Source: Affinundibacterium macrobrachii (GTDB lineage: Bacteria > Pseudomonadota > Gammaproteobacteria > Burkholderiales > Burkholderiaceae_D). From it: DNA of 64,000 nt. Location: the NCBI RefSeq assembly GCF_014652415.1, contig NZ_BMYT01000002.1, positions 434,001-498,000 on the forward strand, written 5' to 3'. The notes beneath the pieces are model-generated. The model was not told the origin of the DNA. It made no database searches and worked only from the letters and a program-made list of their open reading frames with translations. The stretch's first letter is position 1; every line of letters begins with the position of its first letter. Both the position numbers and the translations under genes were made by a program. Of this stretch, positions 7,439-21,316 are shown one piece after another.

Positions 7439-9076
7439 ATGCAAAGACGTGATTTTCTACAAATGGGTGGTGCCGCTTTAGGTAGCTTGTTATTACCTTC
7501 ATTTGCGCGGGCGATTGAGGTTGAAGAGCTATTAAAGCCAGTCTCCAACCAAGCCCGTAAGACCCTAGCCGATATCGCCTTAAATGCGGCGACAACAGCA
7601 GGCGCGAGTTATTGCGATGTGCGAATTGGACGTTACTTAAACCAGTTCATTTCTACACGTGATTTGAACGTAGAAAACGTGGTCAATACCGAATCTGCTG
7701 GTGTCGGTGTGCGTGTGATTGCGAACGGCGCGTATGGCTTTGCCGCTAGTAACGATATGTCACCCGATAGTATTGCGACAGCAGCGCGTCAAGCGGTGGC
7801 GATTGCGAAAGCGAATGCTAAATTACAAACTGAGCCAGTCCGTTTAGCAGCAGTGAAAGGTGTTGGCGAAGTCAGTTGGGCGACCCCGATCAAAAAAGAT
7901 TGGCGTACTGTGCCAATCAAAGAGAAAGTGGAATTGCTGCTAGCCGCGAATAAAGCGGGGATGGAAGCTGGTGCCAATTTCATGCAATCGGTGATGTTCC
8001 AAGTCAATCAGCAAAAATATTTCGCCTCCACCGATGGTTCTTATATCGACCAAGATGTACATCGTTTCTGGATGCCAGTAAGCGCAACTGCGGTCGATAC
8101 CAAAACCAATAAATTCCGTACTCGTCAAGGTTTGTCCGCGCCAGTTGGCATGGGCTACGAATATCTCGACGCACGTCCAGAAGATAAAGTACAAGCAGCT
8201 GGCGGTGTCGCCACCTTATACAAAAATTCCTATGACTTGATTGCCGATGCGCGCGCATGCGGTGCCAGCGCCAAACAAAAATTGACGGCGAAATCAGTCG
8301 TGCCGGGCAAGTATGATCTGGTCTTGAGTCCAGAACACTTGTGGTTGACGATCCATGAATCAGTGGGTCATCCTACTGAGCTAGATCGGGTACTTGGTTA
8401 TGAAGCTAATTTTGCTGGCACTAGTTTCGCCACGATTGATAAGTGGGAAAGCAAAAAATTCAAATACGGTTCTAGCAATGTGAACATCATTGCCGATAAA
8501 ACCGTACCTGGTTCACTCGGTGCAGTGGGCTATGACGATGAAGGTGTCGCCTGCAAACAGTGGGACATCATTAAAGACGGTATCTTGGTCAACTACCAAG
8601 CAACGCGTGACCAAGTACACATGCTCGGTCAAACCGAATCACATGGTTGTTCTTATGCAGATAACTGGAGTAGCGTGCAGTTCCAACGTATGCCAAACAT
8701 CTCTCTGGCACCGGGTAGGAAACGTCTGACACCGGATGAAATGGTGAAAGACGTCAAGAAGGGCATTTACATTGTTGGTGATGGCTCATTCTCTATTGAT
8801 CAACAGCGCTTTAACTTCCAGTTCGGTGGTCAGATGTATTTCGAGATCAAGAACGGCAAAATTGGCGAGCAATTGGAAGATGTTGCCTACCAATCGAATA
8901 CCCAAGAATTTTGGAATGCTTGCAGCGCCACTTGCGATGAGCGTGATTGGCGTTTAGGCGGTTCCTTCTTTGACGGTAAAGGTCAGCCTAGCCAATCAAG
9001 CGCAGTCTCGCATGGTTCAAGCACGACGCGCTTTAATGGCATCAATGTGATTAACACCGCACGTAAGATTGCTTAA
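7439..9076 (+). CDS. TldD-like metalloprotease with Tat signal, copy 1
   Basis: This 545-residue TldD/PmbA-family protein carries the HExxxH zinc motif (IHESVGHPTELDRV, His near residue 306). A Cys-containing segment (WNACSATCDERDW near 495) could supply the third metal ligand. In Escherichia coli, TldD forms a heterodimer with TldE that degrades peptides, including microcin B17 precursor and CcdA. Unlike that cytosolic TldD (about 480 residues), this one begins with a twin-arginine signal, QRRDFLQM, then a hydrophobic stretch ending SFARA. Folded export to the periplasm is therefore predicted. The frame also has a GTG at 7436, but AGGAG at 7429-7433 is best spaced for the ATG at 7439. The TldE-like partner follows after 13 bases. 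The second pair at 10561-13591 is clearly paralogous, and the C-terminal stretch is almost identical (SHGSSTTRFNGINVINTAR). Confidence 0.9.
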   Translation: MQRRDFLQMGGAALGSLLLPSFARAIEVEELLKPVSNQARKTLADIALNAATTAGASYCDVRIGRYLNQFISTRDLNVENVVNTESAGVGVRVIANGAYGFAASNDMSPDSIATAARQAVAIAKANAKLQTEPVRLAAVKGVGEVSWATPIKKDWRTVPIKEKVELLLAANKAGMEAGANFMQSVMFQVNQQKYFASTDGSYIDQDVHRFWMPVSATAVDTKTNKFRTRQGLSAPVGMGYEYLDARPEDKVQAAGGVATLYKNSYDLIADARACGASAKQKLTAKSVVPGKYDLVLSPEHLWLTIHESVGHPTELDRVLGYEANFAGTSFATIDKWESKKFKYGSSNVNIIADKTVPGSLGAVGYDDEGVACKQWDIIKDGILVNYQATRDQVHMLGQTESHGCSYADNWSSVQFQRMPNISLAPGRKRLTPDEMVKDVKKGIYIVGDGSFSIDQQRFNFQFGGQMYFEIKNGKIGEQLEDVAYQSNTQEFWNACSATCDERDWRLGGSFFDGKGQPSQSSAVSHGSSTTRFNGINVINTARKIA

Positions 9077-9089
9077 GGCGAGGATGACT

Positions 9090-10433
9090 ATGAAACAATT
9101 GAATCAACTCAGCCAAGAAGAAGCAAAACGTATCTGCGACAAAGTCATGTCTTTTTCTAAGGCAGACGAATGCAACGTGCAACTTGGTGGCGGCAGTACA
9201 GGGAATATTCGTTTTGCCCGTAATGCTGTTTCTACCTCAGGGGTGATTGGTGATACGCAATTGGTAGTGGCGGTCGCCTTTGGCAAGAAGCAAGGTATTA
9301 CAACCATCAATGAATTTGACGATGCATCCTTAGAAAAAGTGGTGCGACGCGCAGAAGATTTGGCACGCTTGGCACCGGAAAATCCCGAGTTCATGCCTGC
9401 TGTGAGCAAGCAAAGCTTTCAAGCATCGCCCACTTTTCATCAAAAGACTGCGGATATCGATCCTGAGTTTCGCGCTGAAGTCGCTGCCTATGCGGTTGAA
9501 GCCTGTCGCAAAAACAAATTAATTGGTGCAGGATTTTTCACTGATAACAATGGCTTTAGCTGCATCGCTAACTCCAACGGTGTATTTGGGTTTCAACGTC
9601 AAACGGGTCTAGATTTTACTTGCACTGTGCGTACTGAAGATGGTCGTGGCTCGGGTTGGGTCAAACGCTCAATCAACGATGCCAGCCGTTTTGATGTGCG
9701 CGAAGCAGTCGATGTGGCGATGGACAAAGCCAAACGCTCTTTGAATGCAAAGGCGCTAGAACCCGGTCGTTACACCGTCATCTTGGAACCCGCCGCTACT
9801 TCCGATTTGATCGGCAATATGCTTGGCAATTTTGATGCACGTCAGGCGGATGAAGGTCGCAGCTTTTTATCAAAGAAAGGCGGCGGTAATCGTCTCGGTG
9901 AAAAGCTGTTTGATGAACAGGTCAATATTTGGGCAGATCCTTGGCATCCCGAAATCGGTGTCTTGCCTTGGGATGGTGCTATGTTGCCGCGCCAGCGTAC
10001 CGAAGTGATTAAAAATGGCAGAGTTAATTCGCTAGAATATTCGCGCTTCTGGGCACAAAAAAAGCAAGTCGCACCGATGGCGAGCCATGGAAATATGATC
10101 ATGGCGGGCACCGATAAAACGACGGCTGAGTTGATCGCCAATACCAAAAAAGGGGTGTTAGTAACACGTACTTGGTATATCCGTCTGGTGGATCCACAAT
10201 CAGTTCTATTAACTGGCTTAACACGCGACGGTACTTTTTATATTGAGAACGGCAAGATCATGTATCCGATCAAAAATTTCCGTTTCAATGAAAGCCCTAT
10301 CAGTATGCTCAACAATATTGAGGAAATCGGTAAGCCAGTCATTATTGCGGGTGATGAAGTGCCATATCAAATGTTGATTCCGCCAATGAAGGTGCGTGAT
10401 TTCAACTTTACTTCCTTGTCTGATGCTGTGTAG
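9090..10433 (+). CDS. TldE/PmbA-like partner protein, copy 1
   Basis: This 447-residue PmbA/TldE-family protein lacks the HExxxH motif, as expected for the non-catalytic half of a TldD/TldE complex. The family features visible are the N-terminal alpha/beta part (RFARNAVSTSGV, VVRRAEDLARLAPENPEFMP) and the C-terminal beta-rich part (LEPGRYTVILEPAA, SFLSKKGGGNRLGEKLFDEQ). The frame opens at a TTG at 9069 inside tldD, but GCGAGG lies just before the ATG at 9090, which is the likely start (9084 is an alternative). No signal peptide precedes the mature-looking N terminus (MKQLNQLSQEEAKRICD), although the upstream TldD has a Tat signal. Either the partner rides out through Tat bound to TldD, or the two proteins are separated. 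Its paralogue is at 12260-13591. Confidence 0.88.
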   Translation: MKQLNQLSQEEAKRICDKVMSFSKADECNVQLGGGSTGNIRFARNAVSTSGVIGDTQLVVAVAFGKKQGITTINEFDDASLEKVVRRAEDLARLAPENPEFMPAVSKQSFQASPTFHQKTADIDPEFRAEVAAYAVEACRKNKLIGAGFFTDNNGFSCIANSNGVFGFQRQTGLDFTCTVRTEDGRGSGWVKRSINDASRFDVREAVDVAMDKAKRSLNAKALEPGRYTVILEPAATSDLIGNMLGNFDARQADEGRSFLSKKGGGNRLGEKLFDEQVNIWADPWHPEIGVLPWDGAMLPRQRTEVIKNGRVNSLEYSRFWAQKKQVAPMASHGNMIMAGTDKTTAELIANTKKGVLVTRTWYIRLVDPQSVLLTGLTRDGTFYIENGKIMYPIKNFRFNESPISMLNNIEEIGKPVIIAGDEVPYQMLIPPMKVRDFNFTSLSDAV

Positions 10434-10438
10434 AAATC

Positions 10439-10503
10439 GGACTTACGCAAAACAGATGCTAGCGTCGGCGACGCGCCTAGCTAGCGTAATTTTGCATAGG
10501 TCC
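10439..10503. repeat. 65-bp palindromic mini-element (MITE-like)
   Basis: GGACTTACGCAAAA at 10439-10452 is mirrored by TTTTGCATAGGTCC at 10490-10503, an inverted pair that matches at 12 of 14 positions. Inside, GCTAGC occurs on both sides of a GCGTCG-G-CGACGC core, so the whole element can fold. No T-run follows. The flanks TAGAAATC and TAGGAATA are similar but not a clean target duplication. It sits between the two tldD/tldE pairs and could be a decayed transposon remnant, a REP-type palindrome, or a transcript-end structure. Confidence 0.5.
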
Positions 10504-10560
10504 TAGGAATAAAAGAACAAAACAGAATTAATCACGATAGTATTTTTTTCAGGAGTTGCT

Positions 10561-12198
10561 ATGGAACGACGTAGCTTTTTAAAGATCAGTGGCATCGCAG
10601 CGGGTAGCTTGATTATTCCCGTATGTGGCAATGCGATTGCCGCAGAAGAATTATTAAACCCCGTTGGTAAAGCATTTAAGAAAAGTTTGGCTGATGCAGC
10701 GATGAATGCCGCGACCAAAGCGGGCGCAAGTTATTGCGATGTACGCATTGGTCGTTATGTGAATCAGTTCATCACGACGCGCGATACGCGTGTAGAAAAT
10801 ATCGTTAATTCCGAATCGATGGGTGTGGGCGTACGCGTGATCGCAGGTGGCGCTTATGGCTTTGCTTCCACCAATGATTTGTCCTTAGATGCGGTTGCCA
10901 GTATGGCAAAGCAAGCAGTGGCAATTGCGAAAGCGAATGCGAAATTACAGAGCGAGCCGCTGATTTTGGCACCGGTTAAAGGTGTCGGTGAAGTGAGTTG
11001 GGCGACCCCATTCACAAAAGATTGGCGTGTCGTTCCGGTCAAGGAAAAAGTCGATATGCTGATTGCAGCAAATCGTGCTGGTCTAGAAGCTGGCGCGAAT
11101 TTTATGCAATCGAATTTGTTCCAAGTGAATCAAGAAAAGTATTTTGCTTCTACGGATGGTTCTTATATCGATCAAGATATTCATCGCTTGTGGGCACCGA
11201 TGACAGCGACCGCAGTCGATAAGGCGACCAACAAATTCCGCAGCCGTGAAAGCTTGTCTTCGCCAGTCGGTATGGGCTTTGAATTCTTTGACGCCAAGCC
11301 TGAAGATAAAGTCAAGGCGGCAGGTGGTGTGGCGACGCTATACAAAAATTCACTTGATGTGATTGAAGAAGCGCGTGAAGCCGGGCGTCAAGCACGCGAG
11401 AAATTAGCGGCGAAATCGGTCGAGCCAGGCAAGTATGATTTGGTCTTGAGCCCAGATCACTTATTCTTAACGATACATGAATCAGTTGGACATCCAACCG
11501 AACTTGATCGCGTTCTTGGTTACGAAGCAAACTATGCAGGAACCAGTTTCGCGACCTTGGATAAATGGCGCACCAAGAAATTCAAATTTGGCGCGGATCG
11601 CGTCAATTTCTTCGCAGATAAAACCACACCTGGTTCGCTCGGTGCGGTCGGCTATGACGATGAGGGTGTGCCATGCAAACGCTGGGATATCATCAAAGAT
11701 GGCGTGCTAGTCAACTATCAAGCAACCCGCGATCAAGCGCATATCATTGATGAAAAAGAATCACATGGCTGTTCTTATGCCGATAGTTGGAGCAGCGTAC
11801 AGTTCCAACGTATGCCGAATGTGTCCTTGGCCGCTGGCAAAACACCATTGACGCCTGATGAGATGGTCAAAGACGTTAAGAAGGGCATCTATATTTTAGG
11901 TCGCGGTTCTTACTCTATCGATCAACAACGTTATAACTTCCAATTCGGCGGTCAATTATTTTTCGAAATTAAAAACGGTAAGATTGTCGGCCCTGTTGAA
12001 GATGTCGCTTACCAATCGAATACCCAAGAATTTTGGAATAGCTGTAGTGCGATTTGTGATGAGCGTGATTGGCGTATGGGTGGTTCTTTCTTTGATGGTA
12101 AAGGCCAGCCAAGTCAAGTCAGCGCGGTGTCGCATGGCTCTAGTACAACCCGTTTTAACGGCATCAATGTGATCAACACAGCACGCAAAATTGCTTGA
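10561..12198 (+). CDS. TldD-like metalloprotease with Tat signal, copy 2
   Basis: This 545-residue paralogue of the protein at 7439 is collinear over its full length. It has its own twin-arginine signal (ERRSFLKI, close to the consensus RRxFLK) followed by a hydrophobic stretch ending near GNAIAA. The zinc motif IHESVGHPTELDRV falls at the same residue, about 306. The Cys-rich segment near 495 reads WNSCSAICDERDW. The family cleaves peptides together with a TldE partner, and periplasmic action is inferred from the Tat signal. The start ATG is preceded by CAGGAGTTGCT. Keeping all motifs in both copies suggests that both are functional and may differ in substrate. The gene is followed after 61 bases by its own TldE-like partner, so the unit that was duplicated was the pair. 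Confidence 0.9.
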   Translation: MERRSFLKISGIAAGSLIIPVCGNAIAAEELLNPVGKAFKKSLADAAMNAATKAGASYCDVRIGRYVNQFITTRDTRVENIVNSESMGVGVRVIAGGAYGFASTNDLSLDAVASMAKQAVAIAKANAKLQSEPLILAPVKGVGEVSWATPFTKDWRVVPVKEKVDMLIAANRAGLEAGANFMQSNLFQVNQEKYFASTDGSYIDQDIHRLWAPMTATAVDKATNKFRSRESLSSPVGMGFEFFDAKPEDKVKAAGGVATLYKNSLDVIEEAREAGRQAREKLAAKSVEPGKYDLVLSPDHLFLTIHESVGHPTELDRVLGYEANYAGTSFATLDKWRTKKFKFGADRVNFFADKTTPGSLGAVGYDDEGVPCKRWDIIKDGVLVNYQATRDQAHIIDEKESHGCSYADSWSSVQFQRMPNVSLAAGKTPLTPDEMVKDVKKGIYILGRGSYSIDQQRYNFQFGGQLFFEIKNGKIVGPVEDVAYQSNTQEFWNSCSAICDERDWRMGGSFFDGKGQPSQVSAVSHGSSTTRFNGINVINTARKIA

Positions 12199-12259
12199 TC
12201 CATTTCACGTAGCTAAACCAAATAAGCTTACTAAATAAGCCAATAAAAATAGGAAACAT

Positions 12260-13591
12260 ATGATGAAGAAAATGACTCAGGAAGAAGCAAAGCGCATCTG
12301 TGACCGTGTGATTGGGTTTTCTAAAGCAGATGAATGTCGCGTGGTAATTCAGGGCAGCCGTGCTGGCAATATTCGTTACGCGCAAAATAGTGTCTCGACC
12401 GCTGGCTTAAATCAAGATACGCAATTATCGGTCAGCGTCGCTTTTGGCAAGCGCCAAGGTACAGCGACGATCAATGAGTTTGATGATAAATCTTTGGAAA
12501 AGGCGGTGCGCCGTGCAGAAGATATCGCCCGCTTAGCGCCAGAGAATCCAGAATTCATGCCAGCAGCGAGCAAACAAGAATTCAAAGCAACGCCAACTTA
12601 TTTTGAAAAAACTGCTGCAATTGATCCTGAATATCGTGCCGAAGTAGCGGCACAAAGCATCAGCCTAGCGAAGAAAAATAAGCTGATTTCAGCAGGTTTC
12701 TTCCTTGATACTTTAGGCTTTGAAGTGATTGCAAATTCGAATGGTGTGTTTGGATTTCAAGAATCGTCTAATTTGAGTTTTAGTTGCACAGCACGTACCG
12801 AAGATGGTCGTGGTTCAGGCTGGGTAACGCGTAGCGCGAATGATGTGAGTAAGTTTGATCCGCGCGAAGCGTCTGAGATTGCGATCGAAAAAGCCATGCG
12901 TTCGGTCGATGCGAAGGCATTAGAACCAGGGCGTTACACGGTGGTTCTAGAGCCAGCAGCTTCATCTGATATTTTGAATTTTATGTTCAACGCATTTGAT
13001 GCGCGTCAAGCAGATGAAGGACGTAGCTTCTTGTCGAAAAAAGGTGGTGGTAATCGCCTTGGCGAGAAGATGTTCGATGAACAGGTGAATATCTGGACCG
13101 ATCCCTGGAATGCTGATGCACCTGTGAGCCCATGGGATAGCGGATCCATGTTGGCGCGCGAGCCTATGTCTATGGTCAAGAATGGCAAGATTGAGTCTTT
13201 GCAGTATTCAAATTTCTGGGCCAAGAAGCAAGGCGTTGCACCGCGCGGTCGTGCAGGCAATACGATTATGTCCGGTGGTACCAAATCAACCGAAGAACTG
13301 ATCGCCTCGACCAAGAAGGGTATTTTGGTGACACGCACTTGGTATATCCGTTCGGTCGATCCACAATCTTTATTGGTAACAGGTTTGACTCGCGATGGTA
13401 CTTTTTACATTGAGAATGGCAAGGTCAAACATCCGGTCAAAAACTTCCGCTTCAATGAAAGCCCAGTCACGATGCTGAACAACATCGATGATTTGGGTAA
13501 GACTCAAGTGTTTGGTGATGGTCGCAAATCGGTGGTGCCAGCGATGAAGTTGCGCGATTTTAACTTCACATCTTTGTCTGATGCGGTTTAA
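12260..13591 (+). CDS. TldE/PmbA-like partner protein, copy 2
   Basis: This 443-residue paralogue of the protein at 9090 shares long stretches with it (EEAKRICDRVIGFSKADEC, SFLSKKGGGNRLGEK, VLVTRTWYIR-type and KLRDFNFTSLSDAV segments). It has no HExxxH motif and no signal peptide. AGGAAA lies directly before the ATGATG start at 12260/12263. Its likely role is the non-catalytic half of a complex with the Tat-type TldD just upstream. As with copy 1, the lack of an export signal next to an exported partner is the puzzle. A hairpin terminator at 13644-13677 separates it from the MoxR operon. Confidence 0.88.
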   Translation: MMKKMTQEEAKRICDRVIGFSKADECRVVIQGSRAGNIRYAQNSVSTAGLNQDTQLSVSVAFGKRQGTATINEFDDKSLEKAVRRAEDIARLAPENPEFMPAASKQEFKATPTYFEKTAAIDPEYRAEVAAQSISLAKKNKLISAGFFLDTLGFEVIANSNGVFGFQESSNLSFSCTARTEDGRGSGWVTRSANDVSKFDPREASEIAIEKAMRSVDAKALEPGRYTVVLEPAASSDILNFMFNAFDARQADEGRSFLSKKGGGNRLGEKMFDEQVNIWTDPWNADAPVSPWDSGSMLAREPMSMVKNGKIESLQYSNFWAKKQGVAPRGRAGNTIMSGGTKSTEELIASTKKGILVTRTWYIRSVDPQSLLVTGLTRDGTFYIENGKVKHPVKNFRFNESPVTMLNNIDDLGKTQVFGDGRKSVVPAMKLRDFNFTSLSDAV

Positions 13592-13733: not shown

Positions 13734-14354
13734 ATGTCGAATTTCGATTTCTACTTCACCCGTGTAATGTACGACTCCGGCGATTGGGATGTGGATATCC
13801 GTATGCCGAGCAATATTTTGAATTCACTGGTCGAGTACACCACCTTGCGAGTTGATACAGTAGAGCGGGTTACTGCATTGTCTGATCCCAAAATTTTGGA
13901 AGCGCCGTTTTGCTACATGGCCGGACATAAGTTAGTGCAATTGAGTGCGATAGAGCGCAAACATTTAGAACGTTATATCAAAGGTGGCGGCTTTCTATTT
14001 GTAGACGATTGCAATCACGATATCGACGGCTTGTTTGCCAAATCGTTTGAAGCCGAAATTGCACAGATTTTTGGCATCAAAGCTTTAAAGAAAATCCCAA
14101 ATAATCATCCTTTGTATTCCTGCTTTTTTCGCTTCGATGGACCACCCAATACCAGTGTTGAGCTAAATGGTTGGGGCGATGATTTGGTGCATGATTATTT
14201 GAAAGCAGTTGAAATCAATGGCCGTATTCGTCTTTTGTATAGCAACAAAGATTATGGTTGCGAGTGGGATTATGATTTTCGGAACAAGCGGTTTTTAGCC
14301 GTAGATAATACGCGTTTTGCCGTGAATATTATTCAGTATGCTTTAGGAGCGTAG
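13734..14354 (+). CDS. DUF4159-family protein
   Basis: From the ATG at 13734 the protein has 206 residues and begins directly with the family-like segment FYFTRVMYDSGDWDVD. A Rossmann-like core follows (YIKGGGFLFVDDCNHD), similar to a degenerate glutamine-amidotransferase fold, and later NHPLYSCFF. The frame is open upstream to a GTG at 13653, but that lies inside the terminator hairpin, and the extra 27 residues look non-coding. No signal peptide is visible from 13734, although many relatives are exported. It is the first gene of a six-gene run, and the next gene starts 1 base after its stop. DUF4159 proteins commonly sit with MoxR and DUF58 genes. Their biochemical role is not known to me. 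Confidence 0.8.
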   Translation: MSNFDFYFTRVMYDSGDWDVDIRMPSNILNSLVEYTTLRVDTVERVTALSDPKILEAPFCYMAGHKLVQLSAIERKHLERYIKGGGFLFVDDCNHDIDGLFAKSFEAEIAQIFGIKALKKIPNNHPLYSCFFRFDGPPNTSVELNGWGDDLVHDYLKAVEINGRIRLLYSNKDYGCEWDYDFRNKRFLAVDNTRFAVNIIQYALGA

Positions 14355-14355
14355 T

Positions 14356-15360
14356 ATGCAGTCGAATGTGCCAGTGAGTTGGAGTGAAGCAGAAATCGCG
14401 GATTTGAGCGCCAAAGTGCATGCCCTGACCACAAGTATGTCGCAAGTGATTATTGGACAAAAGGATGTGATCGAATCTTTGGTGATTTGCTTGTTGGCGG
14501 GCGGTCATGCTTTGGTAGAAGGGGTTCCTGGATTAGGTAAGACGCTGTTAGTAAAATCCTTAGCGCAAGCGACAGATCTTGAATTTCGACGAGTTCAGTT
14601 CACACCTGATTTAATGCCATCAGATATCGTCGGTACAGAAATTTTGGAAGAAGACACCAGCACGCGACAACGCGTATTTCGTTTTCAAAAAGGGCCGGTG
14701 TTCACCCAAGTTTTATTGGCAGATGAGATTAATCGTGCGCCACCAAAGACGCAATCTGCTTTGCTAGAAGCGATGCAGGAACGCAGTGTGACTTTTGCTG
14801 GGCAAACGCATCGTTTGCCGAAACCTTTCTTTGTGCTAGCAACCCAAAATCCGATTGAGCAAGCGGGTACTTATCCTTTACCTGAGGCGCAGTTAGATCG
14901 CTTTTTATTGCGTATCGATGTTGGCTACCCAAGTGAAGACGAAGAAATGTTGATGGTAGAACGCACTACGCATGCTGGGATCGCTGATGCGGTCAGTGCG
15001 ATGGATGTGCAGAGTCTGTTACGCCTACAAAGTTTGGTACGTGATATTGAAGTGGGTGAACATTTGGTACGTTATGCGACTCGCTTGATTCGAGCGACGC
15101 GCCCACAGTTGACGACGGTAGACAGTGTACGTAAGCATGTCGGTTGGGGCGCTGGTCCACGTGCTGGTCAGGCGCTGGTGTTGGCATCCAAAGCACGCGC
15201 CTTGATGCATGGACGATTAGCTGTGACACGTGAAGATATGGCGGCGATGTTATTGCCTGTGTTGGCACATCGCGTATTGCGTAATTTTGAAGCGGAAGCT
15301 GACGGTGTTGCGATTGCCGATATTTTGCTTGCGCTACGCGAGCAGATACGCGTCGAATAG
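14356..15360 (+). CDS. MoxR-family AAA+ ATPase
   Basis: This 334-residue cytosolic ATPase has Walker A GVPGLGKT (about 56-63), Walker B LLADEINRAPP (about 120-130) and the sensor-1 region LATQNPIEQAGTYPLPEAQ. The C-terminal lid domain contains ASKARALMHGR and VLAHRVLRNFEAE. MoxR ATPases act as chaperone-like maturation factors, usually beside DUF58 and von Willebrand-type partners, for example in metal insertion or complex assembly. Here the next gene is DUF58, as expected. The client of this copy is unknown. The nearby exported zinc-protease pairs are candidate clients, but that is only inference from neighbourhood. The ATG follows the previous stop by one base, which indicates translational coupling. 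Confidence 0.93.
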   Translation: MQSNVPVSWSEAEIADLSAKVHALTTSMSQVIIGQKDVIESLVICLLAGGHALVEGVPGLGKTLLVKSLAQATDLEFRRVQFTPDLMPSDIVGTEILEEDTSTRQRVFRFQKGPVFTQVLLADEINRAPPKTQSALLEAMQERSVTFAGQTHRLPKPFFVLATQNPIEQAGTYPLPEAQLDRFLLRIDVGYPSEDEEMLMVERTTHAGIADAVSAMDVQSLLRLQSLVRDIEVGEHLVRYATRLIRATRPQLTTVDSVRKHVGWGAGPRAGQALVLASKARALMHGRLAVTREDMAAMLLPVLAHRVLRNFEAEADGVAIADILLALREQIRVE

Positions 15361-15404: not shown

Positions 15405-16289
15405 ATGCTTGATAGCGCTTCTTTGCTGGCGCATAGCCAGGATTTAGATTTGATCGTTCGCCATGTATTGGCGGGGCTCGGTCATGGCTTGCATGCAGGA
15501 CGTGAGCGTGGCGCTGGGGTAGAATTTTCTGAGTATCGCGCCTATGCGCCTGGTGATGAGTGGCGTCGTGTCGATTGGAAACTGTTGGCGCGCAATGATC
15601 GCTATTATGTACGTGAAGCCGAACGCGATAGTCATGTGGCGATTTGGTTATGGCTTGATGCCAGTGCTTCGATGTCTGAAGCGAGTTATGACCATCCGAA
15701 CGTAAGCAAGCTCGATTTTGCACGGGTGATTTTTGCTTGTCTTGCTGCCGTAGCGCAACGACAGGGCGATGCGTTTGGTTTGCTGATTGCGCAAAACGGG
15801 CGATTTCAAATCACGCCAGCGGCTCGCGGTCCTCGGCAATTCCATCGCGTGATGGCGCAGCTAAAACAAACGAGCGCGGCCGGTGTTTTGCCTGATGCAG
15901 CTTTGCTCAAGGCGCAATTGCACTTTGCACGCGCACCTAGCCTGATTTTTGCGATTAGCGATTTCTTAGAGTGGCCATCGGCGTGTTCAGAAAGCTTGGT
16001 ACGCTTGCGCCATATGCGACATGATGTGCGTGCCCTGTGTCTGCAAACGCGGGCTGAATGTGAAGCGGGATTTGCATCGACGCTTGCCTATGTTGATCCC
16101 GAACAAAATGCTGATCCGGTTAAATTTTCTGAAACCGCAAAGGCGGATTTCCTAGCAGCGCACATCGCACATTTTCAGCGCGTAGAACAACAGTGTCGTC
16201 AGGTAAATATTCCTTTCTTACGTGCTTGCATAGAGCAAGATGTCGGTAAGACACTCAGAGACTGGCTTAAGTTGGCAGGGCGCGCATGA
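15405..16289 (+). CDS. DUF58 domain protein, MoxR partner
   Basis: This 294-residue protein has the DUF58 signature GVEFSEYRAYAPGDEWRR (about 41-58) and WKLLARNDRYYVREAE. A von Willebrand-like strand with a DxSxS metal site follows (LWLDASASMS, about 85-94). DUF58 proteins are the standard partners of MoxR ATPases and probably bind divalent metal through this site. No membrane segment is visible, so it is likely a peripheral cytosolic protein. The start ATG at 15405 has no clear Shine-Dalgarno sequence. A tiny upstream reading frame begins at 15394 and stops just after the DUF58 start, possibly allowing re-initiation. The gene overlaps the next one by 4 bases. Confidence 0.88.
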   Translation: MLDSASLLAHSQDLDLIVRHVLAGLGHGLHAGRERGAGVEFSEYRAYAPGDEWRRVDWKLLARNDRYYVREAERDSHVAIWLWLDASASMSEASYDHPNVSKLDFARVIFACLAAVAQRQGDAFGLLIAQNGRFQITPAARGPRQFHRVMAQLKQTSAAGVLPDAALLKAQLHFARAPSLIFAISDFLEWPSACSESLVRLRHMRHDVRALCLQTRAECEAGFASTLAYVDPEQNADPVKFSETAKADFLAAHIAHFQRVEQQCRQVNIPFLRACIEQDVGKTLRDWLKLAGRA

Positions 16290-17365
16290 TGAACTTTAAT
16301 CTTGGCTTGAGTCCTGCTTGGTGGTTGTTATTGCCGCTATTGATCTTACCAATCTGGTGGCTGCGCCAGCGACGTGAAACACTAGTCAGAAAAACACTCG
16401 CGACGGCAAAGTTTTTAGCCCCCGCAAAACCGCAATTGGTAAGGGTATGGCGTTGGCGTGAATGGTTATTGATGTTATTGCGTTGCCTGTTGCTGCTGAT
16501 GGTGATCGTCTATTTAGCGAGTTTGTTTATCGCTTGGCGTGGCGATACCGTATTGGTAGGCGACGATCTTGATCCGCTGTGGTTGCAGCAACAGCTCAAA
16601 GAAACTGGTATGCAAAACGCTAAGCAGCGTCGTTTTTGCGCACGTACTGAATGTGATGTGCAAAGTTCGCAGCTTTTATATTGGTTGGTTGAACATCAAA
16701 AAGACTGGCAAGTCGATGCACGTATTTTGATTTTGGCGCGGGCAGGGCAGTTGGCATGGAGTGCAGAATCACCGCAGTTACTGCCTAAGACCGAAATACG
16801 GGTACAAGACTATCCGCTTAAAGCGCCAGTACGTACCCACTATATTGCATTGCGTAGCGATCATCCTGAAGTATGGCAAAGCTTGTTTCGTGCCTTTAGT
16901 GTGGCTGGCGATGGACAAGATCGCTATGTATGGCAGCAGCAAGCTGATGCCAAAACGGATTTAATCATTTGGGATAGTAATCAGTCTGTACCTAGCAATT
17001 GGCAAGCGCCGTACTGGTGGATGAAACGACCTGCAAAAGAATTGCCTAAGGATTGGATCGCGCAAAACAATCCTGCGCTAGCTGGATTGGCTTTACATCA
17101 ATATCAGCGCGGAAAAGTTCGTTATTGGTTGACCGAGCAAGCAGGGCAATGGCCTATGTATAAATTAGAAGAGACGAAGCAATGGTATCGCGCCTGGCAA
17201 CAAAGTCGCGCGCAACAAGTTGATTTGATCTATACCGGCATGCAATTGCCTCGTGCACAGGTCAGCCAAGCAAGTCAGCAAGAAAATACACGTCAATTAT
17301 TATTACTGTGCTTGCTGGTGATTTTTGCTTTGGAGCGGATGTTAAGTCATGTCAAACGTCTCTGA
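16286..17365 (+). CDS. BatA-like membrane protein
   Basis: This 359-residue protein has an N-terminal arrangement like the aerotolerance-regulator (BatA) N-terminal domain. A first membrane helix (WWLLLPLLILPIWWL, about 10-25) is followed by a basic linker and a second helix (LLMLLRCLLLLMVIVYLASL, about 59-80). A long periplasmic or cytosolic soluble part then ends in a last hydrophobic helix (about 330-350) and a basic tail. No von Willebrand DxSxS motif is visible in the soluble part. It overlaps DUF58 by 4 bases and the DUF4175 gene by 17. In MoxR operons such proteins anchor the ATPase/DUF58 module at the inner membrane; for this copy that role is inferred from order. Confidence 0.65.
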   Translation: MMNFNLGLSPAWWLLLPLLILPIWWLRQRRETLVRKTLATAKFLAPAKPQLVRVWRWREWLLMLLRCLLLLMVIVYLASLFIAWRGDTVLVGDDLDPLWLQQQLKETGMQNAKQRRFCARTECDVQSSQLLYWLVEHQKDWQVDARILILARAGQLAWSAESPQLLPKTEIRVQDYPLKAPVRTHYIALRSDHPEVWQSLFRAFSVAGDGQDRYVWQQQADAKTDLIIWDSNQSVPSNWQAPYWWMKRPAKELPKDWIAQNNPALAGLALHQYQRGKVRYWLTEQAGQWPMYKLEETKQWYRAWQQSRAQQVDLIYTGMQLPRAQVSQASQQENTRQLLLLCLLVIFALERMLSHVKRL

Positions 17366-19562
17366 ATCAGTTATCAGCGAAGTGCTCACGCGCGTGTTCC
17401 AAACTTTATGGCGCACGGCTTGTCGCCATCATTTGCTGGCGTGGTTGGCCTTACTTGCACCTTGGATCATTTTGCGACAATTTGGGATCGTGATTCTAGG
17501 TCTTGCATTGATGGTTTTACATTTCTGGTGGTTGCGAAAACGACTAGTGAAAAATTGGCGTAGTTGGGCGAATGCCGATTTTCCAGAACTAGAAGATAGT
17601 ATGCAATTGCTGGTGCAGTCAGAAGTTCAAGCTCAAGCGCCACAACAAAATGGGCAAGCAAATCAACGCACACAGAATGCCGCGCTAGCTGCTTTGCAAG
17701 CACAGCGCGTATTGAAGCGGCTGCCACAAGTTCTGCATCCGGTCGCTTGTCGCCATTTCATTCAACGGCATTTGTCTTTTTCGCGCCTTTGCTTGGCATG
17801 TAGTTGGATAGCTGCCGCGCTATTATTTTTTCTACCGATGTTGATGCCGTCTTTACTAGCGATGAATCAGTCAATGCCAGCGGCAGCTTCAGTAAAACCA
17901 GCGAATAAGCTCGATCTTAATGCGAGTTTGACGATGCACGTGGTGCCACCCGCCTATACCGGTTTAGTTAGCTTTGATTCTGCTCCTAAGGAATTACAAG
18001 TTCCCGAGAATAGCCTAGTCACATGGTGCATACAAACCGATCAAAACTTTGAAAAATTGCCGACTTTGAGCCTAAGTCACGGGCAGGAAATTCGCTTTAC
18101 AAAAACGCAGTCACCGCTTGATCAAGATAAGGTTAAAGACAGAGCTAAAGACAAAATCAAGCTCTGTGCAAGTTGGCAAGCGAGTGAGACGGTATTTTGG
18201 CATTGGAGTGGCGATGCGGGGAAAAGCCGTACTGTATTGAAAGTGTTATTAGATCAAGCGCCACAAATCGATATTGAACAGCCAAGCGAATTGTTGCAGA
18301 TTTTGGCGGCAGAAACGCGCCAAGTCAAAATCGCGCTGCGTATTGCAGACGACTATAAGATCAATCAAGCTACCATGCATATGACCTTGGCACGTGGCAG
18401 TGGTGAGAATATTCGTTTTAGTGATAGAGAATTACCTATTCCGCAAGGTAAAAATCCGCAAATTCGGCAATGGGATAAAACTTGGACCTTAACTGAGTTA
18501 GGGATGGAACCGGGTGATGAGTTGTATTTCTTTGTGCGGGCGACGGATAACGCCGATAAAAATCCGCATATTACTCGTTCTGCAACCTACACCCTGCGTC
18601 TACCAGCGCCAGAAGCGCAAGCAGAAGAAACTTCTGCCTTACCGATGTTGGCAAAACCAGAGTCATTGCGTAGTCAGCGTCAGATCATTATTGATACCGA
18701 ACAATTGTTAGCAGATATCAAGGCCAATCCTAAGATGAATCCCAATTTGATTCGTAGCCGTAGCGAAACGATTGCTGGTGATCAAGGGACTTTACGCCGT
18801 CGTTACGGCAAATTCCTTGGCGAAGAATCGAGCTTATTCGGAGACGACGAGCATGCAGAAGGGCATAGCGCAGATGATGGACATGATCATGGCGATGCCG
18901 CACCACAAAATTTGGCGGCGCAGTATGGACATGCGCATGATCAAGAAGAAAATGCGACCTTGTTTGATGAAGCAACCAAGAAGATTTTGCGTCGTGCCTT
19001 AGTCGCAATGTGGGATGCCGAAAAAGCTTTGCGTGCAATCAGTCCAGCCACCGCTTTAGCGCCAGAAAACATGGCTTTAGAAGCGATCAAACAATTGCAA
19101 CAAGCGGATCGGATCTATTTACACAAGGCTGCGTTTACACCGCCAGCAATCAAAGAGGACAAGCGTTTAACTGGTGATGTGTTGGATTTAAAAAATACCC
19201 AAAAGCAGCAAGACGCGGCACAGCAAATCGTTCCTGAAGAAATACAAAATTTACTGCGCGCATTGCAAAGCGAAAACGCCTTGCCAGCCTTGTGGACAAC
19301 CACGGCGCGCGCTTGGTTTGCCGCGCATCTAACGAAAGAGGAACAACGCCTCGCTGCACAGGCCGCGATCTTGGATGTGGAAAACGGTTGCGCTCCATGC
19401 CGCCCAGTATTAGCGGGATGGATACGGCAGGCGATCCCGCAAGCCGAATTGATTTTGCAAGGGCGTGCTGAGTTCCAAGCAATACGCGAGAGCGGATTTG
19501 AACAGGCATGGAAAAAAATAAAGCCAAGCTCAAGTTCAAGTAAGCCAGAGGTGCAACGATGA
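17349..19562 (+). CDS. DUF4175-like membrane protein with His/Asp-rich insert
   Basis: This 737-residue protein has hydrophobic segments near residues 27-58 and 145-172, followed by a long soluble region. Beta-rich parts are visible: VVPPAYTGL near 198 and DDYKINQATMHMTLARGSG near 336, which resemble the repeat domain of DUF4175 proteins. A helical C-terminal part follows. An unusual insert near residues 495-535 is very rich in His, Asp and Glu (HAEGHSADDGHDHGD, then YGHAHDQEE) and could bind metal. The C-terminal part has CAPCRP. The start overlaps the previous gene by 17 bases, and the stop overlaps the next start (ATGATG). The family has no established function that I know of. The operon position points to a periplasm-facing member of the MoxR module. 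Confidence 0.7.
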   Translation: MSNVSESVISEVLTRVFQTLWRTACRHHLLAWLALLAPWIILRQFGIVILGLALMVLHFWWLRKRLVKNWRSWANADFPELEDSMQLLVQSEVQAQAPQQNGQANQRTQNAALAALQAQRVLKRLPQVLHPVACRHFIQRHLSFSRLCLACSWIAAALLFFLPMLMPSLLAMNQSMPAAASVKPANKLDLNASLTMHVVPPAYTGLVSFDSAPKELQVPENSLVTWCIQTDQNFEKLPTLSLSHGQEIRFTKTQSPLDQDKVKDRAKDKIKLCASWQASETVFWHWSGDAGKSRTVLKVLLDQAPQIDIEQPSELLQILAAETRQVKIALRIADDYKINQATMHMTLARGSGENIRFSDRELPIPQGKNPQIRQWDKTWTLTELGMEPGDELYFFVRATDNADKNPHITRSATYTLRLPAPEAQAEETSALPMLAKPESLRSQRQIIIDTEQLLADIKANPKMNPNLIRSRSETIAGDQGTLRRRYGKFLGEESSLFGDDEHAEGHSADDGHDHGDAAPQNLAAQYGHAHDQEENATLFDEATKKILRRALVAMWDAEKALRAISPATALAPENMALEAIKQLQQADRIYLHKAAFTPPAIKEDKRLTGDVLDLKNTQKQQDAAQQIVPEEIQNLLRALQSENALPALWTTTARAWFAAHLTKEEQRLAAQAAILDVENGCAPCRPVLAGWIRQAIPQAELILQGRAEFQAIRESGFEQAWKKIKPSSSSSKPEVQR

Positions 19563-21316
19563 TGCATAGCTTGATTTCTTCAATGGCGCTTGAAACTTGG
19601 CAAGTCGCGCTGTGTCTGGGCGTAATGCTTGTAGTGCTATTCTCGACTTTGATGTACTGGCGACGAGCGAAGCGTAGCGATGCATTGATGCATACTGCGA
19701 TCATCGCCTGTGCCGGAATTTGTTTTTGCATGATGATCATCGCGCCTAGCCTAACTTTGCAAAGCAATCCACTACGTATCGACAGTGCGAAAAGTCGTCA
19801 CAGCATGGCGCAATGGGTGCAGCAAAGTCAGCATGCCGATTCCTATCAAATTCATGGTGATGGTTTGCGTTGGGCGCAATGGCAAGATTTGCCGCGCTTA
19901 CCGATGCAAATCACAACAACAGCTGTTGATCCCAATTCGACCAAGCTTGACGAAGTGTTGGATTTAGATTTTCCTACGCAGCTCACACAGGGGCGAGTGT
20001 TTCAATTGAGCGTACAACGTCAACATGTTGATGGTGAATGGCGTTTGCAATTGCTAGCTGAAAATCAGCAAGTGCTAGCAGAAACGCGTGGTCGCGAGAA
20101 ACGACTCAGTTTGCAATGGCTACCGCCGGCGGTGGAGCGTTTAGTATTACAAGCAAAAATACTTGATCAGCATGGTCGCGTAATCGAGCAAGGGCCAATT
20201 CCTTTAGAGGTGATCGCACCACAAAGTTTGTTGGTGCAAGCTCGCTTTGCCGCGCCGTCTTTCGATGCCAAGGTGCTCAATGCGCTGCTTAGTCAAAGTC
20301 AGGCTAAGTTAGATTGGCAAACCAAGTTAGGCAAGACGGTTACGCGATTTGAGACTGCTGCTGATGTATCAACACCAACACCAACATCATCACCAACGCA
20401 GGCGAGCACAGCTAAGCCGGATTTGTTGATACAGGATGCCGCGTATTTCGAACAGCAAAATGTTCGAGTACGTGCGCAAGTATTACAGCAAGTAGCGGCA
20501 GGTGCATCCTTAGTTATTCTTGGTGCGAACGCGAGCGATATTGGATTGTGGCGACGAGAATTAGATTTGCGTTTGCAAGCCAGCGATACAAGCAAAGAAA
20601 TCATCATCGATCCTTTGATGAGCTTGAGTCCAACTGCGTGGATGCCGCAAGTCAAGTCAGATGCAAATTGGTATCAGGCTAAGGGACAAAGCTGGATGGC
20701 GCAGCGCGCTTGGGGGCAGGGGCAGATCGTATGGTTGGGTGTGGCTGATTGGCATCGTTACCAAATTAGTGCGACTAATTCTTTGCAAGTTTGGTGGCAA
20801 ACTATCTTGGATCAAGCACAGGTGAAAAAAAGCTTGGATTGGGAAGTGCGGTCTGAACCAAGGATGCAGATTGTTGGTCAGCGTATGCGTCTTTGTGCGC
20901 AGGGCTTGGAACAAGCTGAGCTGGTCTTGGCAGGGCACGAGCAAGGTTTACCCTTGTTACCTGTACGTGATCATGCTGATGCCCAATGCACTGCATTTTG
21001 GCCGGAAAAGCCTGCTTGGTTAGATTGGCAAGCACGAGCAAGGACGAAGTCCGAAGTGAAATCAGCAGCAAAGCTAGTGCAAGGCAAGGACACTAGCACG
21101 CTTGCGGCTGGCGTTGTATACGTCTATCAGCCAGAAGATTGGCCGGCTTGGCAAAGAGCACAAGCACGCGCAGATACAGCAGCGATGTTGGCACTGGCCC
21201 CTGTGGTCGCCGATAACACCAAGGTTTTGCGTCGTAGCTTACCGACTTGGCCTTGGGCCTTGGGTTTGCTGGCAGCGATGCTATTACTATGGTGGCGCGA
21301 GCAGCGAGATAAATAA
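19559..21316 (+). CDS. membrane protein with glutamine-amidotransferase-like domain
   Basis: This 585-residue protein has two N-terminal membrane helices (about 13-33 and 43-62) and a beta-rich middle. An alpha/beta segment that looks like a degenerate class I amidotransferase fold follows (DLLIQDAAYFEQQNV, QVAAGASLVILG near 280-325). The C terminus has a last helix (WALGLLAAMLLLWW) and the tail REQRDK. No Cys nucleophile is visible at the expected place, so catalysis is unlikely. Similar proteins sit at the end of MoxR/DUF58/BatA operons and are thought to be structural. The gene overlaps DUF4175 by 4 bases and is the last of the run. The operon ends in the terminator at 21402-21441. Confidence 0.65.
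   Translation: MMHSLISSMALETWQVALCLGVMLVVLFSTLMYWRRAKRSDALMHTAIIACAGICFCMMIIAPSLTLQSNPLRIDSAKSRHSMAQWVQQSQHADSYQIHGDGLRWAQWQDLPRLPMQITTTAVDPNSTKLDEVLDLDFPTQLTQGRVFQLSVQRQHVDGEWRLQLLAENQQVLAETRGREKRLSLQWLPPAVERLVLQAKILDQHGRVIEQGPIPLEVIAPQSLLVQARFAAPSFDAKVLNALLSQSQAKLDWQTKLGKTVTRFETAADVSTPTPTSSPTQASTAKPDLLIQDAAYFEQQNVRVRAQVLQQVAAGASLVILGANASDIGLWRRELDLRLQASDTSKEIIIDPLMSLSPTAWMPQVKSDANWYQAKGQSWMAQRAWGQGQIVWLGVADWHRYQISATNSLQVWWQTILDQAQVKKSLDWEVRSEPRMQIVGQRMRLCAQGLEQAELVLAGHEQGLPLLPVRDHADAQCTAFWPEKPAWLDWQARARTKSEVKSAAKLVQGKDTSTLAAGVVYVYQPEDWPAWQRAQARADTAAMLALAPVVADNTKVLRRSLPTWPWALGLLAAMLLLWWREQRDK

What the first reader, a model, noticed from the sequence alone, without database searches (positions are those of the whole stretch)
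7439..13591. Duplicated TldD/TldE pairs with Tat signals only on the TldD halves
Seen: two collinear pairs; QRRDFLQM and ERRSFLKI Tat motifs on the HExxxH-bearing subunits; no signal on either TldE-like subunit. Known: E. coli TldD/TldE is a cytosolic heterodimer, and Tat can export a partner lacking a signal when it is pre-bound (hydrogenase subunits). Inference: the TldE-like proteins may be carried out as hitchhikers, making a periplasmic peptide-processing protease. The alternative is that the partners are split across the membrane and the complex is not made.
Basis: partly seen in the sequence, partly recalled or inferred. Interest (0 to 1): 0.78.

Follow-up and report, generated by a model that had tools for sequence, protein, structure and literature searches.

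The report
Exported TldD protease with unsignalled partner
Two side-by-side gene pairs encode a peptide-cutting enzyme whose catalytic half carries a ticket for export of already folded proteins while its partner half does not, a pattern kept in distantly related bacteria, so the partner is probably carried out of the cell's interior as a passenger.

Summary
Two collinear TldD/TldE-type pairs lie at 7439-13591; both HExxxH subunits (D) start with a Tat-type signal, neither partner (E) has one. The asymmetry is conserved: of 183 D relatives examined, 172 have RR plus a hydrophobic stretch, 6 have RK, 5 are cut off; of 159 E none has a Tat signal. At least one E accompanies D in 79 of 79 loci, and the pair usually heads a module DUF4159-MoxR-DUF58-BatA. 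A single-chain D-linker-E model of a relative gave pTM 0.85, against 0.64 for an E-DUF4159 fusion. The TldD/E sphere (~65 A) is within the size range of Tat cargo. Best reading: D and E assemble and take up metal in the cytoplasm and leave together, E as a hitchhiker, giving a periplasmic peptide trimmer. Two additions: the third metal ligand (Cys454 in E. coli) is Asp in this clade, and DUF4159 has a signal-like N-terminus in 11 of 11 gammaproteobacterial loci but in none of 55 others, the window included. Export of E is inferred, not shown. Nine searches of an open-access library listed no paper on it.

The parts
7439..9076 (+). D1: TldD-like catalytic subunit, HExxxH, with N-terminal Tat-type signal
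   Evidence: Pfam PF01523, PF19290, PF19289 above cut-off; motif HESVGH
7439..7513 (+). D1 Tat-type signal peptide MQRRDFLQM..ARA, cleavage after residue 25 inferred from the AxA motif
   Evidence: no SignalP available, cleavage site is inference
8354..8371 (+). D1 HESVGH metal motif
8972..8974 (+). D1 Asp512, at the place of the E. coli metal ligand Cys454
   Evidence: alignment; E. coli ligand from PMC5810440
9090..10433 (+). E1: TldE-like partner subunit, no signal, no HExxxH
10561..12198 (+). D2: TldD-like catalytic subunit, HExxxH, with N-terminal Tat-type signal
10561..10641 (+). D2 Tat-type signal peptide MERRSFLKI..AIA, cleavage after residue 27 inferred from the AxA motif
11476..11493 (+). 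D2 HESVGH metal motif
12094..12096 (+). D2 Asp512, at the place of E. coli Cys454
   Evidence: Asp in 109 of 109 D with residues there, 2 of 111 gapped
12260..13591 (+). E2: TldE-like partner subunit, no signal, no HExxxH
13734..14354 (+). DUF4159 protein, no signal here; orthologues in Gammaproteobacteria carry signal-like N-termini
14356..15360 (+). MoxR-type AAA+ ATPase of the conserved module
15405..16289 (+). DUF58 protein of the conserved module
16286..17365 (+). Protein with BatA N-terminal domain, of the conserved module

Best explanation
Each D/E pair makes one exported peptidase. E folds without a signal and binds D in the cytoplasm, where D also takes up its metal (HExxxH plus Asp512). 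The Tat signal on D then sends the folded, roughly spherical D/E heterodimer through TatABC, and E leaves as a hitchhiker. In the periplasm the closed heterodimer trims unfolded peptides from the N-terminus, as E. coli TldD/E does. Shown here by sequence: the Tat-type leader on D, no signal on E, linkage, metal motif, ligand change, conserved module. Predicted: the heterodimer, for a relative. Inferred: export of E, the compartment, the peptidase activity and a periplasmic substrate. The tandem copy in Oxalobacteraceae is best read as a duplication of the whole pair.
For: Leader on D: 172 of 183 RR plus hydrophobic stretch, 6 RK, 5 cut off at a locus edge (rule gave 173, one of them, L122, a false pass; recount, whose label RK also held 15 RRKF leaders that I put back under RR by reading them). 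R, R and +3 Phe conserved. E: 0 of 159 with a Tat signal; two were flagged by a loose Sec rule, L077 from an upstream stretch that reads through the 3' end of D, L087 from a start codon inside the domain. Linkage: at least one E in 79 of 79 loci; D outnumbers E in 14 (two end after D), E outnumbers D in 1, at a contig edge. Divergent D subfamilies also show Tat-D next to signal-less E: L157-L160, 24-27% identity, and L174-L176. AF2 of neighbouring D and E of L107 read as one chain with their own 43-residue intergenic stretch: pTM 0.85, leader and linker disordered; best solved matches are TldD chains (TM 0.81-0.82) and TldE/PmbA chains (0.80-0.87) (the table does not say which half aligned). 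E-DUF4159 fusion: pTM 0.64, about E's share of the chain. In two-pair Oxalobacteraceae loci (26) first-position D and first-position E are each nearer to first-position copies of other species than to the second copy of their own locus. D-E distance correlation after removing MoxR 0.51, D-DUF4159 0.11. E. coli TldD is active only with TldE, sphere ~65 A (PMC5810440, sections); Tat cargo 20-70 A, HybOC and PaoABC hitchhiking (PMC4273604, abstract and part of the introduction).
Against: No localisation data. SignalP/TatP were not available; signals were judged by rule and eye, and the rule also flagged 3 of 5 GGDEF/EAL and 1 of 60 MoxR neighbours. RK instead of RR in 6 of 183 D could weaken Tat targeting. 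Outside Oxalobacteraceae a strict A-x-A site is found in only 17 of 65 leaders (62 of 64 inside), so cleavage there is unclear. The model is of Spirosoma L107, not of the window's pairs, and the E-DUF4159 fusion is not a matched control (29 rows, 13 joined, against 98 rows, 22 joined). D-D and E-E dimers were not modelled; a Sulfolobus TldD homodimer is reported active (cited in PMC5810440). The mirror-tree value rests partly on shared inheritance, and E-DUF4159 keeps 0.32. TatC is in 197 of 198 Bacteroidota, so co-occurrence says nothing. MoxR and DUF58 look cytosolic, so part of the module is inside in any case.
Confidence: 0.7

Rival explanations
1. The partners are split: D is exported alone, as monomer or homodimer, and E stays in the cytoplasm with another job, perhaps with the cytosolic MoxR/DUF58 proteins or with the canonical TldD.
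For: E carries no signal (0 of 159 Tat); MoxR and DUF58 of the same module look cytosolic; a TldD homodimer has been reported active in Sulfolobus (cited in PMC5810440); the own genome has a canonical TldD and TldE without leaders.
Against: D and E stay neighbours in 79 of 79 loci, the heterodimer of a relative is predicted with pTM 0.85, D and E distances track each other beyond MoxR, and E. coli TldD needs TldE for activity (PMC5810440).
Confidence: 0.13
2. The Tat signal is kept as an uncleaved N-terminal anchor: the D/E complex crosses by Tat but remains tied to the outer face of the inner membrane, next to the BatA-like membrane proteins.
For: A strict A-x-A site is found in only 17 of 65 leaders outside Oxalobacteraceae; the module contains proteins with the BatA N-terminal domain.
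Against: A-x-A in 62 of 64 Oxalobacteraceae leaders, the window's included, argues for cleavage there. This rival differs from the best explanation only in the last step.
Confidence: 0.1
3. The leader does not drive export; D and E are cytosolic and the RR leader has another role, for example chaperone binding.
For: Only rule-based recognition was possible; RK variants exist (6 of 183).
Against: RR and +3 Phe conserved across phyla; the canonical copies in the same genome have no leader; Tat-D recurs in divergent TldD subfamilies.
Confidence: 0.05

Closest known systems
E. coli TldD/TldE (PmbA) heterodimeric metalloprotease, PDB 5NJ5 and related
   Same: Same three Pfam domains, HExxxH in D only, same fold by structure search (TM 0.81-0.82 to TldD chains, 0.80-0.82 to E. 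coli TldE chains), predicted heterodimer for a relative.
   Different: Tat-type leader on D, Asp instead of Cys454 as likely third ligand, NCBIfam equivalog scores far under cut-off (68.8 and 81.7 against 513), linkage of D and E with a DUF4159-MoxR-DUF58-BatA module. That E. coli TldD/E is cytosolic is recalled, not tested.
Tat hitchhiker complexes: hydrogenase-2 HybOC and PaoABC
   Same: One subunit with a Tat signal, one or two partners without; HybOC assembles before export (PMC4273604).
   Different: A metallopeptidase rather than a redox enzyme; export of the partner not tested here.
Uncharacterised Stenotrophomonas maltophilia operon NIPOLPBK_01784-01792
   Same: [quoted passage not shown] some genes lower in biofilm in all isolates (PMC7688217, passage).
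   Different: Its sequence was not fetched; that it is the same module is inference, and the passage does not discuss export.

Membership tests
PmbA/TldD superfamily (Pfam) | PF01523, PF19290, PF19289 above gathering score | tested here: met
   all four proteins
TldD (catalytic subunit) | HExxxH motif | tested here: met
   183 of 183 D; 0 of 159 E
TldD equivalog NF008006 / PmbA equivalog NF008268 | score above curated cut-off | tested here: not met
   D 68.8 and 81.7 against 513; E 49.9 and 70.4 against 438. The genome's canonical copies do meet them (680.1 and 518). A separate subfamily
TldD (E. coli type) | Cys454 as third metal ligand | tested here: not met
   Asp in 109 of 109, Cys in canonical and other subfamilies; PMC5810440 notes Asp in some TldD, so this does not exclude the family
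TldD/TldE heterodimer | D and E form one closed dimer | tested here: inconclusive
   predicted for the relative L107, pTM 0.85; no binding data
Tat substrate | N-terminal twin-arginine motif and hydrophobic stretch | tested here: met
   by rule and eye
Tat substrate | Tat-dependent export | not testable with these tools
   needs fractionation in tat mutants
Tat hitchhiker pair | partner without signal exported only with the signal-bearing subunit | not testable with these tools
   absence of a Tat signal on E shown; export not testable

The most novel reading that the evidence does not exclude
A Tat-exported multi-protein peptide-maturation system in which one signal carries several partners: TldD takes TldE out throughout the clade, and in Oxalobacteraceae and Bacteroidota also the signal-less DUF4159 protein, which in Gammaproteobacteria has its own signal. 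A MoxR/DUF58/BatA machine works with it across the inner membrane. That the same module member appears with and without a signal in different lineages would make it a natural experiment on how Tat hitchhiking evolves.
Probability: 0.25. Interest if true: 0.78.

Novelty: new variant of a known kind. Interest (0 to 1): 0.62.

Why it matters
TldD/TldE is known as a peptidase that matures peptides such as microcin B17 (cytosolic by recall). A widespread exported form would place N-terminal peptide trimming in the periplasm, add a peptidase to the Tat hitchhiker complexes (the ones met in the papers read are redox enzymes), and give an uncharacterised, conserved MoxR/BatA-type operon a first biochemical handle. 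The change of signal status of DUF4159 between lineages makes the idea directly testable.

Tried and rejected
TatC co-occurrence as a test of Tat dependence: rejected, since 197 of 198 Bacteroidota have TatC.

A Sec-exported TldD as a natural counter-test, where hitchhiking would be impossible and E would need its own signal: none was noticed among the loci looked at. Only Pseudomonadota, Bacteroidota, the phylum of L133, the 78 pattern-scan loci and plasmid records were reached, so absence elsewhere is not established.

Asp ligand as a consequence of export: rejected as a strict rule. Tat-bearing L157-L160 and L174-L176 keep Cys; Asp marks the main clade and its near relatives L155 and L156.

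Conserved disulphides in E as evidence for the periplasm: no Cys pair is shared by the E set; one Cys is common (1.00 in Oxalobacteraceae, 0.66 elsewhere). D has three widely conserved Cys (0.92-1.00), but distances could not be measured without coordinates.

E-DUF4159 docking: no support (pTM 0.64). A D-D control was prepared but not run: its 47 single-D rows all fell on the first half, and only two structure jobs were allowed. Alignments A5 and A6 were discarded for misplaced E tails.
Full report
What is there. The window is from an Oxalobacteraceae-like genome: the nearest named relatives of D2 are Oxalobacteraceae MAGs at 98% (residues 1-498) and 91%. At 7439-13591 lie D1, E1, D2, E2, all on the plus strand. 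D1 and D2 match the catalytic half of the TldD/E peptidase and keep HESVGH; E1 and E2 match the non-catalytic half. D1 and D2 begin with RRDFLQM and RRSFLKI followed by an uncharged, mostly hydrophobic stretch and an A-x-A site; E1 and E2 begin at their domain. Downstream follow DUF4159, MoxR, DUF58 and a protein with a BatA N-terminal domain. The same genome has a canonical TldD and a canonical TldE on two other contigs, both without a leader, and one tatC.

Is it conserved? D relatives at E 1e-60 or better were found in 14 of 398 genomes drawn from the phylum, the window's own genome counted. At E 1e-15 or better they were found in 24 of 198 Bacteroidota genomes, the query's genome counted: 18 with a best match of 66% identity or more, two at 49 and 56%, four at 24-27%. 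In those 78 plus the window, D and E occur as D-E, D-E-D-E, D-E-D, D-D-E and a few longer runs. At least one E is present in 79 of 79; D outnumbers E in 14 (two of these end after D), E outnumbers D in one at a contig edge. The loci were chosen by D, so this says that D is not found without E, not the reverse.

Over all loci then fetched, a rule (RR, then a 9-residue stretch without D, E, K, R, N, Q and of fair hydrophobicity) was met by 173 of 183 distinct D of the clade and by 0 of 159 distinct E; 16 duplicates and 3 short D, 23 duplicates and 3 short E were dropped before the count. Of the ten D misses five lack their N-terminus at a locus edge and five have RK. One of the 173 (L122) passed through an upstream RR and is KRKDF, so the count is 172 RR, 6 RK, 5 cut off; a recount gave the same once 15 RRKF leaders that its label RK had caught were read as RR. 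False alarms of the rule: 2 of 14 type-2 D, with flagged positions near or inside the domain, MoxR 1 of 60, GGDEF/EAL proteins 3 of 5, DUF58 0 of 54, BatA 0 of 25. The one flagged 'canonical' D, L159, is a real leader in a Bacteroidota protein that only scores best against the canonical query. In 17 aligned D the two arginines and the Phe are invariant; in 129 leaders they stand at 0.97-1.00 in both halves of the set, though that alignment was anchored on the motif and one row (L122) was read as empty.

The asymmetry recurs further out. In Bacteroidota, TldD proteins of 24-27% identity (L157-L160) also carry Tat-type leaders beside E without one, as do three genomes sampled from the phylum of L133 (L174-L176). 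In that sample 6 of 79 genomes had the family: four with a Tat-type D (G470, G710, G722, G740) and two (G672, G703) without a leader. TldD types without a leader (canonical, type 2, and L050) lie between the leader-bearing ones in a quick tree of 24 sequences, so leaders were probably gained or lost more than once; some nodes are weak.

Do D and E still fit together? The window's own pairs are in different frames and could not be modelled as one chain. In Spirosoma utsteinense (L107) D and E are in frame with a single stop between them. Read as one chain with its 43-residue intergenic stretch, and with 98 aligned rows of which 22 are joined pairs, AlphaFold2 gave mean pLDDT 83.7 and pTM 0.85; the leader (1-25) and the linker (546-590) are disordered. 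My estimate for a chain in which only D is placed is about 0.53 (547 of 1038). The best solved matches are E. coli TldD chains (TM 0.81-0.82) and TldE/PmbA chains (0.80-0.87), 16 chains at E 0.001 or better; the table does not tell which half aligned. A fusion of E with the next gene, DUF4159, in L136 gave 0.64, close to E's share of the chain (437 of 677), so joining alone does not produce a high score; its alignment was shallower, so it is a rough yardstick. Over 60 loci, D and E distances correlate at 0.92, and at 0.51 after removing MoxR, against 0.11 for D-DUF4159 and 0.32 for E-DUF4159. In 26 Oxalobacteraceae loci with two pairs, first-position D are nearer to first-position D of other species (mean 0.16) than to their own second copy (0.22), and the same holds for E (0.26 against 0.34), as expected if the pair was duplicated as a unit.

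Metal site. In E. coli TldD the metal is held by both His of HExxxH and Cys454 (PMC5810440). In the alignment the Cys of VCGKEG or FCGKGEP falls on Asp512 of FFDGKGQP. It is Asp in 109 of 109 clade members with residues there, 2 of 111 being gapped, and in L155 and L156, while the canonical, type 2, L050, L157-L160, L174 and L176 rows have Cys, as has L175. The same paper mentions Asp in Gemmatimonas and calls it more thermolysin-like. An acid ligand that cannot be oxidised would suit an exported enzyme, but Tat-bearing subfamilies with Cys show that it is not required.

The module. DUF4159 is found in 66, MoxR in 64 and DUF58 in 55 of 79 loci, many of which end before the module would. DUF4159 is informative. 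In 11 of 11 gammaproteobacterial loci that contain it (lineage by record title) it has a signal-like N-terminus: nine by rule with RR or RK, plus KR in L127 and RA in L135 seen by eye. By the same rule none was found in 30 Oxalobacteraceae loci including the window, 24 Bacteroidota and one PVC locus. A hydrophobic stretch upstream of the window's DUF4159 is also read in L181 but is absent in L182-L184 and is taken as non-coding. So one member of the module is probably exported in one lineage while its orthologue without a signal sits in the same gene order elsewhere. Either it too can be carried by D, or its compartment changed. The E-DUF4159 model gives no sign of docking to E; docking to D was not tested.

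How it most likely works. D and E assemble and D takes up its metal in the cytoplasm; Tat, which accepts folded cargo of 20-70 A (PMC4273604), exports the ~65 A sphere (PMC5810440) by the leader on D. E. coli TldD/E is active only as the pair, and the authors suggest that it trims unfolded peptides from the N-terminus (PMC5810440, abstract and discussion), so a D exported alone would be expected to be inactive. Hydrogenase-2 and PaoABC are precedents for partners without signals (PMC4273604; PMC10924467, passages). Substrate and physiological role are unknown. A Stenotrophomonas operon of very similar make-up, called not yet characterised, had some genes lowered in biofilm in all isolates (PMC7688217, passage).

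In print? Nine searches of the open-access library listed no paper that by its title, abstract start or passages read describes an exported TldD/TldE; DUF4159 had no hit at all. For the broad searches only the best 12-29 papers were listed, and subscription papers are not covered. Papers opened: PMC5810440 (outline, abstract and three sections), PMC7688217, PMC8602642, PMC10924467 and PMC11508158 (passages), PMC4273604 (outline with abstract and part of the introduction).

Verdict. Hitchhiker export of E is the best-supported reading (about 0.7), a new variant of a known enzyme family and of a known export route. Localisation is the missing experiment.

Noticed in passing
window 13734-14354 and loci L090, L091, L092, L094, L095, L100, L109, L118, L127, L131, L135: DUF4159 has a signal-like N-terminus in 11 of 11 gammaproteobacterial loci and none by rule in 55 other loci of the same module.
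   Followed up: partly
window 8972-8974 and 12094-12096: The third metal ligand of TldD (Cys454 in E. coli) is replaced by Asp throughout the clade.
   Followed up: yes
L148, L151, L152, L154, L166, L122 (first D): RK instead of RR in the leader of D in some Bacteroidota; in L122 the second D of the same locus has RR.
   Followed up: no
L157-L160: A distant TldD group in Bacteroidota has Tat-type leaders with Cys at the ligand position and an adjacent E without one.
   Followed up: partly
Xanthomonas plasmid records H26-H30: Only the first ~100 residues of a D-like protein match, at 46.5% identity: apparent gene fragments on plasmids.
   Followed up: no
window 17349-21316: Two large proteins downstream of the BatA-like gene without any Pfam match, in the same run of genes; the first has a hydrophobic N-terminal region by eye.
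   Followed up: no
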